Under the pieces are notes generated by a model. The model worked only from the letters and a program-made list of their open reading frames with translations, searched no databases and was not told where the DNA came from. From the NCBI GenBank assembly GCA_018241225.1, contig JAFEEG010000019.1, positions 310,001 to 374,000 of the forward strand: DNA of 64,000 nt. The letters are read 5' to 3'. This document shows positions 24,948 through 39,486 of the stretch, one piece after another (position 1 is the first letter of the stretch; every line of letters starts with the position of its first letter). Source of the stretch: Pseudomonadota bacterium. GTDB lineage: Bacteria > Pseudomonadota > Gammaproteobacteria > Burkholderiales > Burkholderiaceae_C. The position numbers and the translations under genes were made by a program.

Positions 24948-25847
24948 TCAAGCCGCCGCCGCTGTGCGCGTTGCAGGAGAAGCCGTCGCGCGCCGGCGCC
25001 GCAGCGGCGCCATGAGCCACGCGATTTCCGCGCAGGCTGCGGCCAGCACGGCCAGGCCCACCGCCTGGTGCCAGGCATCGCCCGGGGGAAGGCCTGCACC
25101 CTCGAAAGCCACCAGCACGCTGTTTCGCAGCACGTTGGCGCCCAGCACCACCAGGCCCACCCAGGGCAGCCGCGTCAGAAAGCCCCGGTTGCCGCGTCCG
25201 GCCCACAGCGCCACCACGCAGGCGACGAAGTAGCCGCACCAGGCCATCTGGACGCCGGAGCAGGGCGCGTCGACGATCACCAGCCGGCCATCGACGATGA
25301 GGCTGGCCGCTTCGCGTTGCACCTCGAAGAAGGGCGCGAGCAGCCAGCGGCTGGCTTCGGCGGTGACGACGCGCAAGGGAAAGCCGGCATAGAACTGCAG
25401 CGACGAGAGAATCGGCAAGGCCAGCACCGCCAGGCCTAGTACCGGTGCGGCGGCCACGCGCCGCGGCATCACGGCCATGACGCCGGCGGCCAGCGCCAGC
25501 AGGGCAACGAGCGCCGCAAACAACGGCGGCAGTGCGGTCAGCGGCCCGATGCCGGTGCGCATGACGGTGGCCGCCAGGGTGCCGACGCTGGCACAGGCGA
25601 GCCAGCCCAGGCGCGGTGCGCAGCGCAGCTCGGCGCGCATGCACCACACCAGCACGACCAGCGCGCCCAGTGCGAGCACGCCCAGCGGATCGTCCGAGCC
25701 GTCGACCATGCGGCGCGCCATCCACCACCAGGTCGACATCAAGGCGGCGGCTTGCAGGGCGAGCCAGCCGATGGCGGGTGCGCGGTCGATGCGGATGAGT
25801 TCGTCGAACAGGCGGGGGTGGCGCTGGGCCAGTGCAGTCAGTGTCAT
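24948..25847 (-). CDS. Exosortase (single-target type)
   Basis: 299 residues, about eight membrane spans. The exosortase/archaeosortase catalytic triad is visible: Cys196 in DAPCSGVQM, Arg241 in ANVLRNS, and His260 in DAWHQAVG. These enzymes cleave PEP-CTERM-type C-terminal signals at the outer face of the inner membrane. The gene lies 25 bases downstream of a VIT/VWA protein that carries such a signal, and no other PEP-CTERM protein is seen in the window, so that protein is the probable dedicated substrate. A weak GAAGAAG precedes ATG 25847. Confidence 0.85.
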   Translation of the reverse strand: MTLTALAQRHPRLFDELIRIDRAPAIGWLALQAAALMSTWWWMARRMVDGSDDPLGVLALGALVVLVWCMRAELRCAPRLGWLACASVGTLAATVMRTGIGPLTALPPLFAALVALLALAAGVMAVMPRRVAAAPVLGLAVLALPILSSLQFYAGFPLRVVTAEASRWLLAPFFEVQREAASLIVDGRLVIVDAPCSGVQMAWCGYFVACVVALWAGRGNRGFLTRLPWVGLVVLGANVLRNSVLVAFEGAGLPPGDAWHQAVGLAVLAAACAEIAWLMAPLRRRRATASPATRTAAAA

Positions 25848-25872: not shown

Positions 25873-27951
25873 TCAGCTGGTGAGGCGGCGCGGGTCGTTG
25901 CGGCGTGCGCGGCGGCGCAGCATGGCCAGCATCGACAGCACCACGGTGATGGCGCCCAGCGTTTCGGGCTCGGGCGTGCCGGGCACTTCGGCGCCGCTGC
26001 CTGCTGGGCCCTGGCCCAGCGCGAGTTCGCTCACGCCCTTGGGCAGGGGCAACGGCTGGTCGACGCGCGTGCTGCCATCGGGTGCGGTGTTGCGCACCAC
26101 CTGGTCCACCGCGATGAAGCTGGTGTATTGGGTGAGCAGGCCGTAGCGCAGGCCCAGCGCGGTGATCTGCTCGCGCAGCTCGCCGCCGCCTTGCAGCGAC
26201 TCCTGGTCCTGCAGCGCGGCGATGCGATGGCGTGCCCACAGGCTTCGCAGCGCAACTGCGTCGGGCTGCAGCGTCGACGCATTCACCGCGAACTCCTGGC
26301 GCCACGGGCCTTCTGCACTTTGGCCTTCCAGCACCAGGCGGCCCTTGGGTTGTCCGCGCCACTTGCCGAACAGGATGACGGGGCGCTCGCCCAGCACGTC
26401 GGGCAGGGCCTGCGGCTCGATGTCGTACGCGTCCAGGCCCTCGAAGCGGGCGCGCAGGTGGGTGAGCACGGGCGATTCGATCATGCGGCGAAAGCGCGCG
26501 GCTTCGCGCGGTGCCTGCATCGGGTCGGTGATGACAAAAGGCTCGCCCATGCCCGCGCGCGCCAGGCCTTCGATGAGGTGGCGGTTCACCGCGCTGCCGA
26601 TGCCGAAGGCGAACAGGTTGGCCTTGCCCAGGTTCTTGCGCACCAGCTCGAAGGCCTCGCGCTCCACCGTCACGTAGCCGTCGGTGACCACCACCACGGT
26701 GCGCGACACCTTGTCGGCCTTGGGCTCGTCGTACACGCGCTTGAGGGCGGGAATGAGTTCGGTGCTGCCGCCGCCCGCGTAGCTGCGGATGGTTTCCAGC
26801 GCCTGCTCGATGTTCGCGCGGCTGGCCGGCACGGGATGCGGCGAGAGCATCTTGTTGCTGCCCGAGAAGAGCAGCACGTTGAAGGTGTCGCTGGGACGAA
26901 GGCCGCCCAGCAGGCGCTCGAGCATGGCTTTGGCCGTGTCCAGCGGAAAGCCGTGCATGGAGCCGGAGATGTCGACCACGAAGATGTAGTCGCGCGGCGA
27001 GATGGATTCGGCCGGCACCGAGCGCGGCGGCTGCACCATGGCCAGGAAGAAGCTCTCGGCGCCCGGGCCCTGGCCGGGATAGAGCATCAGGCCCGACTGG
27101 ATCTGCTCGCCCGAGAGGCGATAGTCGAGCACGAAGTCGCGGTTGTCGGCGCTCTCGCTGGCGGCGCGGAGCACCACGTTGGCGCGCCGGTCCTCGTCGC
27201 TTCGTTGTACGTCGATGGCGTGCGTGAGCGAGCGGAGTTCACCGATGGCCACGGGCGAATCGATGGCCAGCTTCATCTCGAAGGCGCTGCCCGAGGCCAC
27301 ACCGGCGCGCAGCGTGGGCTGCGCCACCCACTCGGAGTGCGCAAGTTCGGAGCGCGGGCTGTTGTAGCGCGGCCCCACCACCATGGGGAACACGAACTGG
27401 TAGCTGCCTGCTTGCGGCACCAGCAGCTCGTTGTAGCGCAGCTCCACCTGCACGTCGTCGCCGGGCAGGATGTTGGCCACCTTCATCTGGAACACGTTGG
27501 GCAGGTGCTGCTCCAGCAGGGCGGCGGTCTTGCCCTGCTGCTTCGCGCTTTCGTACTCCTGGCGCGCCTGCTGCTTCTCGCGGATCTGCGCCTCGATCAC
27601 GCGCTCGGCCAGGCGCACCGTCAGGCCGTTCACCGCCGCGCGGGTGGAGCCGGGGAACACATAGCTCGCCTCGATGGGGCGCGTGCCTTCGTTGCGGTAG
27701 GTCTGGGTGACGCGCACCTGCGCAATCACGCCGGCGATCTTCACGTCCACGGCCGTGCCCTTGAGCGGCAGGCGGTCTACCGACGGGTCGTCGCTCTTGA
27801 CGAAGAAGTAGGGGCTCTCGGTCTTCTGGCGGGGCTGGCCTTGCTCCTGTGCGTGCGCCGGCGGCGGGCTGGCCAGCATCAGCAGGAAGCACAGGGCGGC
27901 CAGCACCAGGGTGCCCAGCCAGAGCCGGCGTGCGTGGCGTGGATGTTCCAT
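25873..27951 (-). CDS. VIT/VWA-domain surface protein with PEP-CTERM-type sorting signal
   Basis: 692 residues from ATG 27951. Signal peptide to about residue 34 (SPPPAHAQ). A vault-inter-alpha-trypsin (VIT) domain spans about 55-180, and a von Willebrand A domain begins at 320 with a complete MIDAS start (DISGS, D327-S331). The C-terminus (658-692) reads TPEPETLG, a hydrophobic helix, then RRRARR: a PEP-CTERM tripartite signal (PEP at 660-662). This is the architecture of the 'marine proteobacterial sortase target protein' family, but here paired with an exosortase rather than a class sortase. First gene of the exosortase operon; the upstream region holds a CreB-type tag. Confidence 0.85.
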   Translation of the reverse strand: MEHPRHARRLWLGTLVLAALCFLLMLASPPPAHAQEQGQPRQKTESPYFFVKSDDPSVDRLPLKGTAVDVKIAGVIAQVRVTQTYRNEGTRPIEASYVFPGSTRAAVNGLTVRLAERVIEAQIREKQQARQEYESAKQQGKTAALLEQHLPNVFQMKVANILPGDDVQVELRYNELLVPQAGSYQFVFPMVVGPRYNSPRSELAHSEWVAQPTLRAGVASGSAFEMKLAIDSPVAIGELRSLTHAIDVQRSDEDRRANVVLRAASESADNRDFVLDYRLSGEQIQSGLMLYPGQGPGAESFFLAMVQPPRSVPAESISPRDYIFVVDISGSMHGFPLDTAKAMLERLLGGLRPSDTFNVLLFSGSNKMLSPHPVPASRANIEQALETIRSYAGGGSTELIPALKRVYDEPKADKVSRTVVVVTDGYVTVEREAFELVRKNLGKANLFAFGIGSAVNRHLIEGLARAGMGEPFVITDPMQAPREAARFRRMIESPVLTHLRARFEGLDAYDIEPQALPDVLGERPVILFGKWRGQPKGRLVLEGQSAEGPWRQEFAVNASTLQPDAVALRSLWARHRIAALQDQESLQGGGELREQITALGLRYGLLTQYTSFIAVDQVVRNTAPDGSTRVDQPLPLPKGVSELALGQGPAGSGAEVPGTPEPETLGAITVVLSMLAMLRRRARRNDPRRLTS

Positions 27952-28067
27952 GTCGTTCGTCCTCTTGTTCTCGTGGAGATGGAAGCCGCACGGCTTGTGC
28001 GGCAACGCCACTGTGGGACGCGGATTCGAAGCCTGTGGGAAGGCTTCTTGAAACGACTTATCCTTGT

Positions 28068-28083
28068 GTGAAGTCTGTGTGAA
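28068..28083 (-). promoter_or_regulatory. CreB-type binding site (cre-tag)
   Basis: On the minus strand the sequence reads TTCAC-ACAGAC-TTCAC, an exact match to the cre-tag TTCAC-N6-TTCAC bound by CreB (E. coli) and BlrA (Aeromonas). It is oriented toward the VIT/VWA-exosortase operon (117 bases upstream of its ATG) and lies 87 bases upstream of the PBP1A start on the other strand. creBC is encoded in the same window. Confidence 0.6.
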
Positions 28084-28120
28084 GTCCGCCCGAACTGGAC
28101 TTCACATCCCCTTCGGGCGG
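28079..28120 (+). repeat. Two overlapping, mutually exclusive inverted repeats upstream of PBP1A
   Basis: Arm A GTGAAGTCC (28079-28087) pairs with GGACTTCAC (28097-28105); arm B CCGCCCGAA (28086-28094) pairs with TTCGGGCGG (28112-28120). Both are perfect 9-bp stems, in the order A-B-A'-B', so they compete or form a pseudoknot. They lie 50-91 bases before the PBP1A start codon. Confidence 0.6.
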
Positions 28121-28169: not shown

Positions 28170-30623
28170 GTGCCCGGACAAAAACCGAAACCCAAAGAAT
28201 CCGTGAACCTCAAAGACAACAAGAAAGCCCTGCTGAAATGGGCTGCCATCGGCCTGGGCGGCCTGGTGCTGGCCGGCGTGCTGCTGGTGGGCGTGGTGGT
28301 GGCCCTGCTGCTGCCGGGCCTGCCCGATGTGAAGCAGCTGGCCGACTACCAGCCCAAGCTGCCGCTGCGCGTGCTCACCACCGACGGGGTGGTGATCGGC
28401 GAGTTCGGCGAAGAGCGGCGGCAGATGGTGCCGCTGGCGCAGATTCCCAAGGCGATGAAGGATGCGGTGATTGCGGTGGAAGACGCGCGCTTCTACGAGC
28501 ATGGCGGCATCGACACCCTGGGCATCCTGCGCGCGGCATTGTCGAACATGGTGCATGGCATGCGCCAGGGCGCATCCACCATCACGCAGCAGGTGGCGCG
28601 CAACGTGTATCTCTCGTCCGAGCGCACCATGAGCCGCAAGCTCAAGGAGGCGCTGATCGCGCTGCGCCTGGAAGACGAGCTTTCCAAGGACCAGATCCTG
28701 GAGATCTACCTCAACCAGATCTACCTGGGCCAGCGGGCCTACGGCTTCGCTGCTGCGTCAGAAGCGTACTTCGGCAAGCCGCTCAAGGACATTACGCTGG
28801 CCGAGGCGGCGATGCTGGCCGGACTGCCCAAAGCGCCGGGTGCGAACAACCCGGTGGCCAATCCGCGCCGCGCGCGGGCGCGCCAGCTCTACGTGCTGGA
28901 CCGCATGCAGTCGCAGGGTTTCGCTACCGCCGAGCAGGTGGCCAAGGCCAAGAACGAGGAGCTGCAGCTGCGCGGCGTGTACAACCCCGAGCGCCTGCAT
29001 GCCGAGTACGTGGCCGAGATGGTTCGCCAGCAGATGGTGGCGCAGTACGGCGACAGCGCCTACGTGCGCGGCCTCACGGTGACCACCACCTTGCTTTCCA
29101 ACGACCAGGCGGCGGCCTACCAGTCGCTGCGCCGCGGCATCCTGGACTACGAACGCCGCCAGCCCTGGCGCGGCCCCGAGGCCAACGTGAAGCTGCCGCA
29201 GGAAGGCGACGCGCTGGACGATGCCATCGACGACGCGCTGGCCGCACACCCCGACGACGGCGAAGTGCTCGCGGCCGTGGTGCTGGAAGCAACGCCCAAG
29301 CAGTTGGTGGCGGTGGGCCGCGACGGTGAGGAGATGAAGATCACCGGCGATGGCCTGCGCCTGGTGCAGGTGGGCCTGTCGACGCGCACCGATGCCCGCC
29401 AGCGCGTGGCGCGCGGCTCGGTGCTGCGCGTCACCAAGAATGCCAAGGGTTCGTGGGAAGTGGTGCAGCTGCCCGAAGTGGAAGGAGCCTTTGTCGGCAT
29501 GGACCCGCGCGACGGCTCCATCCGCGCCCTGGTGGGTGGCTTCGACTTCGGCCAGAACCAGTTCAACCACGTCACGCAGGCATGGCGTCAGCCGGGCTCG
29601 AGCTTCAAGCCATTCATCTATTCTGCGGCTCTCGAAAAGGGCTTCGCGCCCGCCACGCTGGTGAACGACGGTCCGCTGTTCTTCGACCGCGGCACCACTG
29701 GTGGCCAGCCCTGGGAGCCGAAGAATTCCGACGGCAACTTCGACGGCCCCATGACCGTGCGCACGGCGCTGCAGAAGTCCAAGAACATGGTGACCATTCG
29801 CGTGCTGCAGTCCATCGGCACGACGTATGCACAGGAATGGTCGGGTCACTTCGGTCTCGATCCCGACAAGCAGCCGCCCTACCTGCCGATGGCGCTGGGC
29901 GCGGGTTCGGTCACGCCGCTGCAGATGGCAGTGGGCTACGGCGTGTTTGCCAACGGCGGCTACCTGGTCAAGCCCAACCTGGTGAGCAAGGTGGTCGAGC
30001 GCGGCGACAAGGTGCTGTTCGAAGCGCCGCCGCCGGTGCTGGACGAAAGCACGCGCGCCATTCCCGAGCGCAATGCCTTCATCATGCGCACGCTGCTGCA
30101 AAGCGTGATCAAGAACGGCACCGGCGCGCGCGCCTACCAGGCCCTTCGGCGCGAGGACATCTACGGCAAGACCGGCACCACCAACGATTCGTTCGACACC
30201 TGGTTCGCGGGCTTCCAGCCCACGCGCGTGGGCATTGTCTGGATCGGCTACGACACGCCGCGCCAGCTGGGCGTGCGCGGCGAAACCGGCGGCAGCCTGA
30301 GCTTGCCGGTGTGGACCAGTTATATGCAGCGCGTGCTCAAGGGCGTGCCGGTGGAAAAGTCCACCGTGCCGGCGGGCGTGGTGCTGGCCGATGGCGACTG
30401 GTACTACGACGACTACCCACCGGGCCGTGCGGTGCCCAGCCTGGACGTGGATACCGGCCCGAGCCTGGGTGTGCCTGGCGGCGGCGTGCCCGCCGGCACC
30501 GTGCCGGGCTTTGGCAGCAGCCCGCCGGCCGAGGCCATGGGCGGCGCGGCGCCTGCGCCCCAGCAGCAACAACAGGGGCAGACGCAGGACCGGAACTGGA
30601 TCTTGGATCTGTTCAGGCGGTAG
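28170..30623 (+). CDS. mrcA: Penicillin-binding protein 1A (bifunctional transglycosylase/transpeptidase)
   Basis: 817 residues. Membrane anchor at 22-48; GT51 domain with the catalytic Glu104 in AVEDARFYEHGG, GASTITQQ (134-141) and RKLKE with Glu160; an OB-like inserted domain; then the transpeptidase with S477-S-F-K480, S537-K-N539 and K667-T-G. It polymerises lipid II into glycan strands and cross-links them at the inner membrane. The C-terminus is Pro/Gly-rich with a QQQQQ-like tract. Start is GTG 28170, preceded by GAGGAG at 28157-28162. Transcribed divergently from the exosortase operon, with a long 5' region carrying the cre-tag and competing hairpins. Confidence 0.95.
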   Translation: MPGQKPKPKESVNLKDNKKALLKWAAIGLGGLVLAGVLLVGVVVALLLPGLPDVKQLADYQPKLPLRVLTTDGVVIGEFGEERRQMVPLAQIPKAMKDAVIAVEDARFYEHGGIDTLGILRAALSNMVHGMRQGASTITQQVARNVYLSSERTMSRKLKEALIALRLEDELSKDQILEIYLNQIYLGQRAYGFAAASEAYFGKPLKDITLAEAAMLAGLPKAPGANNPVANPRRARARQLYVLDRMQSQGFATAEQVAKAKNEELQLRGVYNPERLHAEYVAEMVRQQMVAQYGDSAYVRGLTVTTTLLSNDQAAAYQSLRRGILDYERRQPWRGPEANVKLPQEGDALDDAIDDALAAHPDDGEVLAAVVLEATPKQLVAVGRDGEEMKITGDGLRLVQVGLSTRTDARQRVARGSVLRVTKNAKGSWEVVQLPEVEGAFVGMDPRDGSIRALVGGFDFGQNQFNHVTQAWRQPGSSFKPFIYSAALEKGFAPATLVNDGPLFFDRGTTGGQPWEPKNSDGNFDGPMTVRTALQKSKNMVTIRVLQSIGTTYAQEWSGHFGLDPDKQPPYLPMALGAGSVTPLQMAVGYGVFANGGYLVKPNLVSKVVERGDKVLFEAPPPVLDESTRAIPERNAFIMRTLLQSVIKNGTGARAYQALRREDIYGKTGTTNDSFDTWFAGFQPTRVGIVWIGYDTPRQLGVRGETGGSLSLPVWTSYMQRVLKGVPVEKSTVPAGVVLADGDWYYDDYPPGRAVPSLDVDTGPSLGVPGGGVPAGTVPGFGSSPPAEAMGGAAPAPQQQQQGQTQDRNWILDLFRR

Positions 30624-31626: not shown

Positions 31627-33123
31627 CTAGTACGACGCGAGCGGCAGGCTCAGGGTTGCAATAGCGCCGCCGCGCGGCGCGTTTTCCAGCGTGATGCGCC
31701 CACGGTGCAGCCCGGCAATCTCCTTGACGAAAGCCAGGCCCAGGCCCGTGCTCTTTTTCTGGCTGTGTGGCCGCGCCAGCGAATAGAACTTCTCGAAGAC
31801 CTGCTCGCGTGCGTAGTCCGGAATGCCCTGGCCGTGGTCGCGCACGGTGATGCGCGCCTCGCGCGAGCCCACGTGCAGGGCCAGTGCCACCTCGGAGTCC
31901 GGCGGCGAAAAATCGATGGCGTTGTCCAGCAGGTTGCTCACGGCGCGGCGCAGCAGGAAAGGGTCGCCCTCGACCTTGGCGTTGCTGTCGATGGCCACGT
32001 GCAGGCGGATCTGCCGCGCCGCGGCGGCGTTCTCGGCGCTGGCGGCCACCTCGTGCAGCAGGGGCGCGAGCGACACGGTTTCGCTGCGCTCCAGCGCGCG
32101 CTGGGTTTCCAGCGCGGTCAGTTCCATCATGCGATCGACGATCTCCTGGATGCGCTGGGTCTCGCCGGCGATGTTGGCCAGGAAGTGATTGCGCTCGGCC
32201 TGCGGCATCGAGGGCTCCTGCAGCAGCTCGGCAGCGCCGCGGATGGCAGACAGCGGGCTCTTGATCTCGTGGGTGAAGGTCTGCACGTAGTCGGCCACGT
32301 AGCTGCGGCCGGTGAGCGCGTCGCGCATCTCGCGCAAGCCGCCGCGCAGGGTGTCGACGGCGCGGCGCAGCATGCGAGTGAGGCTCAGGCTGCGCTGCTG
32401 GCGCAGCCAGCGCAGGTAGTCCGAGATCAGGCCGAAGGGCCGCACCAGCCAGATCGAGACGATCACGGTGAGCAGCAGCAGGGCCAGCGCCGAGCCCACA
32501 CCCACCCACAACGTGCGCGCCCGTGCATCCTGCACGAACTGGCCGAAGCTCTGCACCGGCTTGCCCACGCTGACCACGCCGACGATCTCGCTGCCCCAGC
32601 GGATGGGCGCGGCGGCATACATCACCGAGGTGAGCGGATCGCCGGGCAGGTCGCGCGTGGTGCGCGCGCCGTACTGGCCGGCCAGGGCGCGGCTCACGTC
32701 GCTCCAGCGCGAGTAGTCGGCGTTGAGGTCGCGGCCGGTGGAGTCGAAGATAACGCGGCCGTGCTCGTCGGTGACGACCATGCGCAGCTCCACCCGCGTC
32801 TTGTGCAGGTTGTAGATCTGCGCCGAGAACTCGCGGGCGTACACCGAGCGAAACAGCGGCTCCAGCCGCTGCGTGTTGATGGCGCCGGCAATCACGTCCT
32901 GCTCCACCATGCTGGCCATGAGCTGCGAGATTTCCACCAGCGACTCTTCGGCCGACTCGCGGTAGCGGGGGTCGATGTCGGCCACCACGCGATAGAGCAG
33001 GAAAGCGATGCCGGCAAAATAGATCAGCAGCACGCCGATGAAGATGCGCGTGCGCCGCGAGATGGCGCCTTGGCTCGCGGCTTGCTGGCGCTGGCGCCGC
33101 GTGGCGGCGGGCGATGGCTTCAT
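31627..33123 (-). CDS. creC: Two-component sensor histidine kinase CreC
   Basis: 498 residues. Membrane spans at about 26-46 and 204-226 flank a periplasmic sensor of about 155 residues whose motifs (VIFDST, DYSRWSDV, GQYGAR, SVMYAAAPI, VGVVSVGKP) follow E. coli CreC closely. The cytoplasmic part has the HisKA box with H285 in THEIKSPLSAIRGAAE and the ATPase boxes NLLDNAIDF, DHGQGIPD, and STGLGLAFVKEI. It phosphorylates CreB. In other bacteria CreC responds to fermentation/minimal medium and, in Pseudomonas and Aeromonas homologues, to beta-lactam or PBP inhibition. creD, the usual third member, is absent here. Ten bases after creB. Confidence 0.9.
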   Translation of the reverse strand: MKPSPAATRRQRQQAASQGAISRRTRIFIGVLLIYFAGIAFLLYRVVADIDPRYRESAEESLVEISQLMASMVEQDVIAGAINTQRLEPLFRSVYAREFSAQIYNLHKTRVELRMVVTDEHGRVIFDSTGRDLNADYSRWSDVSRALAGQYGARTTRDLPGDPLTSVMYAAAPIRWGSEIVGVVSVGKPVQSFGQFVQDARARTLWVGVGSALALLLLTVIVSIWLVRPFGLISDYLRWLRQQRSLSLTRMLRRAVDTLRGGLREMRDALTGRSYVADYVQTFTHEIKSPLSAIRGAAELLQEPSMPQAERNHFLANIAGETQRIQEIVDRMMELTALETQRALERSETVSLAPLLHEVAASAENAAAARQIRLHVAIDSNAKVEGDPFLLRRAVSNLLDNAIDFSPPDSEVALALHVGSREARITVRDHGQGIPDYAREQVFEKFYSLARPHSQKKSTGLGLAFVKEIAGLHRGRITLENAPRGGAIATLSLPLASY

Positions 33124-33133
33124 CGTGCGGGCT

Positions 33134-33910
33134 TCACCGCGCCTGGGGCGGCAGGTCTTCGTTCAGGGCGTAGCCGGTGCCGCGCAAGGTGCGGATGGGC
33201 TCGACCTGCGGCGCCACTTCGCGCAGCTTGGCGCGCAGTGTCTTGATGTGCGCGTCCACCGTGCGATCGAAGCTGTCGCTGGCGTCGTCCCATACCAGCT
33301 CCAGCAGTTCCTCGCGGGTGAAGACGCGGCCGGGCCGCTGGATCATCAGGCGCAGCAGGCCGTATTCGTAGCGCGAGAGCTCCAGCAGGCGGCCGTAGTA
33401 GCGGATCTGCATTCGTTCGTTGTCGAGGGCGAAGGGCTGGGCGCCGGTTGCAGGGACCGGGGCCACCGGCGCTGCAGCGGGACCGGTGTGTGCGGCACTG
33501 CCGGCCAGCGCGCCACTGCGGCGAAGGATCGTGCGTACGCGCGCCACCAGCTCGCGTGGCGAGAAGGGCTTGGCGATGTAGTCGTCCGCGCCCAGCTCGA
33601 GGCCCACCACGCGGTCGATCTCGTCGTTGCGCGCGGTGAGAAACAGCATGGGCACGTCAGGCCCGCCGCCGGCGCGGCTCATGGCCTGCAGGCGCTTGAA
33701 CAGCTCGAAGCCGTTCATGTCGGGCAGGCCGATATCCAGGATGACGATGGCCGGCGGCTGCGCCTCGAACTCGGCCAGCGCCGCCTGCGCGGTGGCGCAC
33801 CACACGGGCACGAAGCCGTCGCTCTTGAGAACGTATTGCAGGGTGTCCGCAATGCCGGATTCGTCTTCGGCGATCAGGACGCGTTGCTGCGAGAAAGACA
33901 TGGGCGCCAT
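33134..33910 (-). CDS. creB: Two-component response regulator CreB
   Basis: 258 residues. Receiver domain with acidic pair E15/D16, phospho-acceptor D59 in VILDIGLPDMNG, and the Lys in ADDYIAKPFSP; then a Pro/Ala-rich linker of about 27 residues; then an OmpR-type winged helix (ELSRYEYGLLRLMIQRPGRVFTREELL and RTVDAHIKTLRAKL). The long linker is unusual for CreB. Start could be ATG 33910 or 33901. It is followed by creC on the same strand. A perfect cre-tag lies between the exosortase operon and PBP1A in this window, giving it a probable local regulon. Confidence 0.88.
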   Translation of the reverse strand: MAPMSFSQQRVLIAEDESGIADTLQYVLKSDGFVPVWCATAQAALAEFEAQPPAIVILDIGLPDMNGFELFKRLQAMSRAGGGPDVPMLFLTARNDEIDRVVGLELGADDYIAKPFSPRELVARVRTILRRSGALAGSAAHTGPAAAPVAPVPATGAQPFALDNERMQIRYYGRLLELSRYEYGLLRLMIQRPGRVFTREELLELVWDDASDSFDRTVDAHIKTLRAKLREVAPQVEPIRTLRGTGYALNEDLPPQAR

Positions 33911-39453: not shown

Positions 39454-39486
39454 GTGAAAGTGAGGTGAACCAAGAGTTTGGGTATT

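What the first reader, a model, noticed from the sequence alone, without database searches (positions are those of the whole stretch)
28068..28083. A perfect CreB tag between an exosortase operon and PBP1A, with creBC nearby
TTCAC-ACAGAC-TTCAC matches the cre-tag exactly. By chance one such 10-base pattern is expected about 0.12 times in 64 kb on both strands. It lies in the divergent region of a surface-protein/exosortase operon and PBP1A, and the cognate creBC genes are 3.5 kb away without creD. Since CreBC/BlrAB homologues respond to PBP inhibition, this suggests a CreB-controlled cell-wall/surface response in this lineage.
Basis: partly seen in the sequence, partly recalled or inferred. 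Interest (0 to 1): 0.72.

Follow-up and report, generated by a model that had tools for sequence, protein, structure and literature searches.

The report
CreB-controlled exosortase surface-protein operon
A short DNA tag known to attract the stress regulator CreB sits, almost unchanged in the sampled species of a bacterial genus and in modified form in distant bacteria, in front of genes for a surface protein and the membrane enzyme thought to sort it, suggesting that an envelope signal controls this surface system.

Summary
The tag is real (28068-28083, minus strand) and conserved: exact in 67 of 68 Variovorax loci, one mismatch in the 68th, while flanks have diverged. It points at a VIT/vWA protein with a PEP-CTERM-like tail and exosortase Q. 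An imperfect opposite-strand tag (28101-28116) faces PBP1A. In 48 of the 68 genomes the divergent gene is creD, the classical CreB target; here creD is not found and PBP1A stands in its place. Elsewhere the tag follows CreB. In a Verrucomicrobiota sample, all 15 Xrt-linked VIT genes have forward tags (13 arrays of three or more half-sites, two imperfect pairs), the 2 unlinked none; CreB occurs in 14 of those 15 genomes against 30 of 221 others. In Pseudomonas nitroreducens creD and VIT-Xrt share one drifted tag. Related VIT-sortase operons that carry creB have a similar repeat in 9 of 11; two sortase systems with another regulator do not. Best reading: CreB directly controls a VIT surface protein and its sorting enzyme, with a weaker divergent site for creD or PBP1A. 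Binding, expression, sign and signal are untested.

The parts
28068..28083 (-). forward cre tag TTCACACAGACTTCAC, 116 bp before the likely ATG of the VIT gene
   Evidence: exact in 67 of 68 Variovorax loci
28101..28116 (+). reverse, imperfect tag TTCACATCCCCTTCGG facing PBP1A (facing creD in most relatives)
   Evidence: at most 2 mismatches at one of two fixed offsets in 54 of 68 loci, Markov rate 0.0015 per locus; offsets chosen after seeing the data
25873..27951 (-). VIT/vWA surface protein with signal-peptide-like start (ORF opens at 28011; likely ATG 27951)
   Evidence: PF08487, PF13768; TIGR03788 420 bits, below its cut-off
25876..25977 (-). PEP-CTERM-like sorting tail: TPEPET, hydrophobic stretch, RRRARR
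   Evidence: read from the translation
24948..25847 (-). exosortase Q (XrtQ)
   Evidence: NF012182 373.5 bits, cut-off 270
28170..30623 (+). PBP1A-family penicillin-binding protein
   Evidence: TIGR02074 602.6 bits, cut-off 508.75
31627..33123 (-). CreC sensor kinase
   Evidence: NF008312 582.6 bits, cut-off 356
33134..33847 (-). CreB response regulator
   Evidence: NF008296 308.8 bits, cut-off 273 (scored on the longer ORF)

Best explanation
The tag is a working CreB site whose main job is to control the VIT-xrtQ operon. An envelope signal makes CreC phosphorylate CreB (inferred from known CreBC systems). CreB binds the perfect 11-bp direct repeat upstream of VIT (inferred from conservation and co-occurrence) and activates a secreted VIT/vWA protein together with exosortase Q, which probably processes its PEP-CTERM-like tail (inferred). 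A second, weaker tag facing the other way serves creD in most Variovorax. In the window's lineage creD is missing and PBP1A lies at about the distance that creD had, so PBP1A may have inherited weak CreB control (inferred). In other bacteria the same regulator-target pair occurs with a sortase instead of the exosortase.
For: Forward tag exact in 67 of 68 Variovorax loci; half-sites 1.99 bits against 0.60 in flanks. Exact in 19 of 20 creD-less genomes, so creD is not what keeps it. Two near-complete genus genomes without VIT and xrtQ orthologues have no CreB orthologue either. G431, of another family, has creB-creC-exact tag-VIT-xrtQ in a row. Verrucomicrobiota: forward tags at 15 of 15 Xrt-linked VIT genes, 0 of 2 others; CreB in 14 of 15 such genomes against 30 of 221 others, p 1.2e-10; the 15th also has CreB when searched alone. 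Of 30 CreB loci there, five have an array just upstream of creB. In P. nitroreducens creD (PF06123 526 bits) and VIT-Xrt carry the same variant, TCCAC-N6-TCCAC. Pseudomonadaceae VIT-sortase operons carry creB in 11 of 11 and a drifted repeat in 9 of 11 (Markov 1.6); the Xrt type has it in 19 of 19 (Markov 2.2). VIT genes of two sortase systems with the regulator TIGR03787 lack a nearby repeat. The E. coli creD tag is on the strand of its gene, as here for VIT.
Against: No binding or expression data. No exact tag in any of the 30 Pseudomonadaceae loci examined; the variant there was defined after seeing the sequences. No exact tag upstream of creB in the Variovorax stretches fetched. Of seven other Burkholderiales creB loci fetched, three show no exact tag near creC. 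G421 and G279 have an XrtQ-like gene (VIT confirmed in G421) and a CreB-like regulator (241 bits in G421, cut-off 273), but no tag within 1 mismatch. One Verrucomicrobial VIT gene with a PEP tail but no Xrt neighbour (L230) has no tag although its genome has CreB. Thirty of 221 Verrucomicrobiota genomes have CreB without this VIT, and Variovorax genomes hold 0 to 14 exact tags each, so CreB must have other targets. Sign and signal are assumed.
Confidence: 0.85

Rival explanations
1. The perfect tag mainly serves the divergent gene (creD, here PBP1A), and VIT-xrtQ is a bystander.
For: creD is the classical CreB target and the divergent gene in 48 of 68 loci. creD and PBP1A are co-directional; the gap is at most 160 bp in 25 of 48.
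Against: The perfect tag is on the VIT strand. It is exact in 19 of 20 creD-less genomes. G047, where creC instead of creD or PBP1A precedes VIT, keeps the forward tag with one mismatch and has no reverse tag at the usual place (6 mismatches; a 2-mismatch match lies further off). In G431 and two Verrucomicrobial loci (G582, G636) creC lies directly before VIT with the tag between.
Confidence: 0.06
2. The repeat binds another OmpR/PhoB-family regulator, not CreB.
For: Many such regulators bind direct repeats (recalled), and the genomes searched encode many of them.
Against: The core equals the published cre/blr tag (PMC3660660, PMC4689548, passages). creB is linked to it in Variovorax, co-occurs with it in Verrucomicrobiota and is part of the Pseudomonadaceae sortase operons. 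It changes in step with the creD tag in P. nitroreducens. The likely recognition helix of CreB is similar in the lineages aligned (10 rows, one misframed).
Confidence: 0.05
3. CreB binds but acts as a repressor, or the signal is carbon or fermentation rather than cell-wall damage.
For: E. coli CreBC answers to carbon source and oxygen and represses malE (PMC3962086, passages).
Against: creD is activated. In P. aeruginosa creD rises through CreBC on PBP4 loss and is inducible by cefoxitin (PMC2654508, passages). PBP1A, and in the one intervening gene tested a NagZ-like hydrolase, lie in the same cluster.
Confidence: 0.25
4. The reverse tag is a remnant without function in this lineage, and PBP1A is constitutive.
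For: It has two mismatches to the tag; 14 of 68 loci miss the 2-mismatch limit; G023, G024 and G027 show a changed second half-site.
Against: It is within 2 mismatches in 18 of 20 creD-less genomes and lies 53 bp before the PBP1A start in the window, as it lies 48-50 bp before the first plausible creD start in 26 of 48 others.
Confidence: 0.4

Closest known systems
CreBC/BlrAB and the cre/blr tag TTCACN6TTCAC (E. coli, Aeromonas, P. aeruginosa, S. maltophilia)
   Same: CreB and CreC above curated cut-offs, exact tag, tag on the strand of its target, creD next to it in most relatives.
   Different: Main target here is a VIT-exosortase operon; creD is missing in this lineage. Verrucomicrobiota have arrays of up to five half-sites, Pseudomonadaceae drifted half-sites such as TCCAC and ACCAC.
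Proteobacterial dedicated sortase system (TIGR03784, TIGR03785, TIGR03787, TIGR03788)
   Same: One sorting enzyme, one VIT/vWA target and a two-component system beside them (L164). In Pseudomonadaceae a class GN sortase version has CreB as its regulator and a drifted tag.
   Different: The window has an exosortase, not a sortase, and CreBC, not the TIGR03785/03787 pair; its target is below the TIGR03788 cut-off (420 against 551.65).
Exosortase/PEP-CTERM systems, XrtQ (NF012182)
   Same: XrtQ above cut-off, next to a protein with a PEP-CTERM-like tail.
   Different: I saw no paper on CreB control of such a system in the searches made (open-licence library only).

Membership tests
CreB regulon member (cre/blr tag) | exact TTCACN6TTCAC upstream of the target | tested here: met
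   exact in 67 of 68 loci
CreB regulon member (cre/blr tag) | cognate CreB and CreC encoded | tested here: met
   both above curated cut-offs
CreB regulon member (cre/blr tag) | same orientation relative to target as at E. coli creD | tested here: met
   E. coli tag on the creD strand; window tag on the VIT strand
CreB regulon member (cre/blr tag) | CreB binds and changes expression | not testable with these tools
   needs footprint and creB mutant
classical creBCD locus | creD present | tested here: not met
   no PF06123 match in the window's genome; found in 49 of 73 genus genomes
proteobacterial dedicated sortase system | target above TIGR03788 cut-off | tested here: not met
   420.4 against 551.65
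proteobacterial dedicated sortase system | TIGR03787 regulator and TIGR03785 kinase | tested here: not met
   128 against 335.7 and 105 against 612.2
proteobacterial dedicated sortase system | class GN sortase TIGR03784 next to the target | tested here: not met
   the neighbour is exosortase Q; the rest of the genome was not searched for a sortase
exosortase Q | NF012182 above cut-off | tested here: met
   373.5 against 270
exosortase Q | partner with PEP-CTERM-like tail | tested here: met
   read from the sequence
exosortase Q | cleavage or anchoring of the target | not testable with these tools
   needs protein chemistry

The most novel reading that the evidence does not exclude
Control of a VIT/vWA surface protein and its sorting enzyme, alongside CreD, is an old job of CreBC shared by Pseudomonadota and Verrucomicrobiota. 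The regulator follows the VIT target, whether that target is sorted by an exosortase or by a sortase. 
Probability: 0.5. Interest if true: 0.82.

Novelty: new variant of a known kind. Interest (0 to 1): 0.7.

Why it matters
What CreBC and most exosortases are for is unclear. This ties the two together by a conserved site in two phyla and gives a simple test: activate CreBC and look for one surface protein. It also explains, by absence of creD, how a penicillin-binding protein came to sit next to a CreB tag, and it offers VIT-xrtQ as a readout of CreBC in genomes without creD.

Tried and rejected
Second exact tag of the window (39454): rejected as chance, absent from 4 of 4 relatives looked at. 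The other three exact tags of the genome (L201-L203) were only placed against ORFs and not resolved. Other tags in Variovorax: a FAD-oxidoreductase gene (L204, L205, L207, L209) and an alpha-2-macroglobulin-like gene (L206, L208); chosen by me from a truncated list, not pursued. That the perfect tag belongs to PBP1A: rejected, because in 48 of 68 loci creD stands between. That every VIT gene has a tag: rejected; of 16 VIT homologues without a PEP-CTERM tail or Xrt neighbour seen (several contigs end too early to tell) none has a forward tag within 1 mismatch (2 of 16 have one on the other strand) and none the looser repeat. My own first conclusion, that sortase-type VIT genes lack the tag, was wrong for Pseudomonadaceae: it rested on the TTCAC spelling and fell when the drifted spelling was used. 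One array of three or more half-sites lies inside the L229 locus, outside the upstream region. A repeat downstream of the tag that resembles the E. coli creD leader was noticed, not tested. One ORF (L138:5091-6383) was the wrong stretch; the right one is. The G088 row was misframed and ignored. One search dropped 3 of 68 rows (G028, G050, G069).

Full report
What is there. The window is part of a 6.4 Mb genome whose nearest named relatives are Variovorax. On the minus strand lie a VIT/vWA protein (ORF 25873-28011) and exosortase Q (24948-25847). On the plus strand, divergent, lies PBP1A (28170-30623). creC and creB follow on the minus strand (31627-33847). The VIT protein starts with a signal-peptide-like stretch and ends in TPEPET, a hydrophobic stretch and RRRARR. 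XrtQ, CreB and CreC are above their curated cut-offs. The roles of exosortases, PEP-CTERM tails and VIT/vWA domains are recalled family knowledge.

Is the tag more than chance? It is an exact TTCACN6TTCAC on the VIT strand. Shuffles give 0.03 per window; two are found. The other, at 39454, is absent from 4 of 4 relatives. The genome has five. One genome cannot decide, so I used relatives.

Conservation in the genus. Of 73 genomes of the genus in the sample, 68 including the window's have an orthologous VIT gene. I took the DNA around all of them. The forward tag is exact in 67 of 68; G047 has one mismatch. Half-site columns hold 1.99 bits on average, the spacer 1.57, the flanks 0.60, the flanks including the reverse tag. 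A CreB match of about 70% identity or more is present in all 68 (split in G040, partial in G069), mostly within 10 kb of VIT. Five genomes lack a VIT orthologue. G003 and G065 are near-complete and have no XrtQ, CreB orthologue or creD. G012 and G037 are incomplete; neither has CreB or creD, and G037 has an XrtQ fragment. G022, a fragmented assembly, has creB, creC, creD, an exact tag, a 43% identical XrtQ, and a short reading frame where VIT would be.

Which gene owns the tag? In 48 of the 68 the divergent neighbour is creD. PBP1A lies behind it in the same direction: within 160 bp in 25 of 48, after a gap of 1.35-1.46 kb in 22, and 485 bp in one. The one gap gene tested (L138) is a NagZ-like GH3 protein, 157 bits, below its cut-off of 207. 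In 20 genomes, the window included, creD is not found; in 18 of them a PBP1A match is the next divergent gene found (none seen in G047 and G050; the G050 contig is short). On a tree of CreB, CreC and XrtQ (65 of 68 rows) creD presence changes at least 4 times, 3 forced by well-supported branches. The tree cannot tell gain from loss; loss is my inference. The forward tag is exact in 48 of 48 creD-bearing and 19 of 20 creD-less genomes. It points toward VIT, as the E. coli tag points toward creD.

A second tag. On the opposite strand, 17 or 18 bp away, lies a repeat close to TTCAY-N6-TTCGG. It is within 2 mismatches of the tag at one of two fixed offsets in 54 of 68 loci (36 of 48 with creD, 18 of 20 without); Markov sequences reach this in 0.0015 of draws. 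The offsets were chosen after seeing the data. G006 and G054, with creD, have none at these offsets. The repeat lies 48-50 bp before the first plausible creD start in 26 of 48 and 53 bp before PBP1A in the window. G047, where creC precedes VIT, lacks it there. This is the weaker half of the argument.

Beyond the genus. G431, of another family, has creB, creC, an exact tag, VIT and XrtQ in a row. G104 has an exact tag before a different VIT protein and an XrtQ-like gene. Of seven further creB loci fetched from Burkholderiales, four have an exact tag just after creC, three of them before creD; three do not. In a Verrucomicrobiota class sample, 17 VIT genes occur in 16 of 236 genomes. Fifteen are next to an Xrt gene (L214 only by a short match at a contig end). 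Of these, 13 have forward arrays of three to five half-sites at 11-bp spacing and two (L224, L226) a pair with one mismatch. The two without Xrt have none. No shuffle of 5100 gave an array of three or more. CreB (E at most 1e-68) is found in 14 of the 15 genomes against 30 of 221 others (p 1.2e-10, not corrected for relatedness); the 15th, G532, has CreB over the cut-off when searched alone. In G582 and G636 creB and creC stand directly before VIT. Of 30 CreB loci examined there, five have an array of at least three half-sites just upstream of creB (L189, L234, L247, L252, L254) and three one near the end of creC (L236, L242, L245).

Pseudomonadaceae, and a correction. VIT genes occur in 34 of 298 genomes; 30 loci were examined. 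The 19 closer ones are followed by Xrt, the 11 more distant ones by a sortase. L279, the one tested, passes TIGR03788 and TIGR03784. None of the 30 has an exact tag. With the looser repeat N[TC]CA[CT]-N6-N[TC]CA[CT], chosen after seeing the sequences, 19 of 19 Xrt-type loci match (Markov 2.2) and 9 of 11 sortase-type loci (Markov 1.6), the latter mostly as ACCACACACAAACCAC about 53 bp before the aligned start. In all 11 sortase-type loci a CreB gene follows the sortase (L279's scores 337 bits, cut-off 273). In P. nitroreducens a 14-kb creBC stretch holds one T[TC]CA[CT] repeat, TCCACACAGTCTCCAC, 71 bp before creD (PF06123 526 bits); its VIT gene has TCCACACAATCTCCAC. By contrast, VIT genes of two sortase systems with the regulator TIGR03787 (L164, L165) show no nearby repeat (one match at -301 in L165), and 16 VIT homologues elsewhere show none (0.7 expected). 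So the tag follows CreB, not the kind of sorting enzyme.

How it most likely works. An envelope signal activates CreC and CreB, as known for PBP4 loss in P. aeruginosa (PMC2654508, passages). CreB binds the forward tag and turns on VIT-xrtQ; the weaker tag serves creD or PBP1A. Shown here: gene content, tag conservation, orientation, co-occurrence. Inferred: binding, activation, signal, and XrtQ processing of the VIT tail.

Known and new. The cre/blr tag and its place before creD are known (PMC3660660, PMC4689548, passages). A dedicated sortase system with its own two-component pair is curated by NCBI. The full-text searches found no paper with both CreBC and exosortase, and XrtQ only in a paper on quadrotors (also 12, 13, 31, 32, 33, 76, 77; open-licence papers only). 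So this is a new variant: a VIT surface protein with its sorting enzyme placed under CreBC.

Noticed in passing
window 39454-39469: Second exact cre tag abutting the ATG of an FMN oxidoreductase gene; absent from 4 relatives, so probably chance.
   Followed up: yes
L279-L289: Pseudomonadaceae class GN sortase operons (VIT, sortase, CreB) carry creB and a drifted repeat before VIT; the curated dedicated-sortase regulator TIGR03787 is replaced by CreB in the one tested.
   Followed up: partly
L138:7041-8333: NagZ-like GH3 gene between creD and PBP1A; a gap of gene size is seen in 22 of 48 creD-bearing Variovorax loci.
   Followed up: partly
L204, L205, L207, L209: Tags upstream of a FAD-dependent oxidoreductase gene in four Variovorax genomes, possible further CreB target.
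   Followed up: partly
L206, L208: Tag just before an alpha-2-macroglobulin-like gene (bMG3, MG2 domains) in two Variovorax genomes.
   Followed up: partly
L026:11824-13221, L019:4311-5678: XrtQ relatives in Pseudomonas and Opitutia are about 160 aa longer than the 299-aa XrtQ of the window.
   Followed up: no
L195, L196: XrtQ-like gene next to a CreB-like regulator (VIT gene confirmed in L195), without a cre tag: perhaps a further regulatory version.
   Followed up: partly
L166:3000-3600: In G022 a short secreted-looking frame stands between tag and XrtQ where VIT would be, with creD divergent.
   Followed up: partly
window 28026-28052: Three TTC words at 11-bp spacing downstream of the tag resemble the leader of E. 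coli creD.
   Followed up: no
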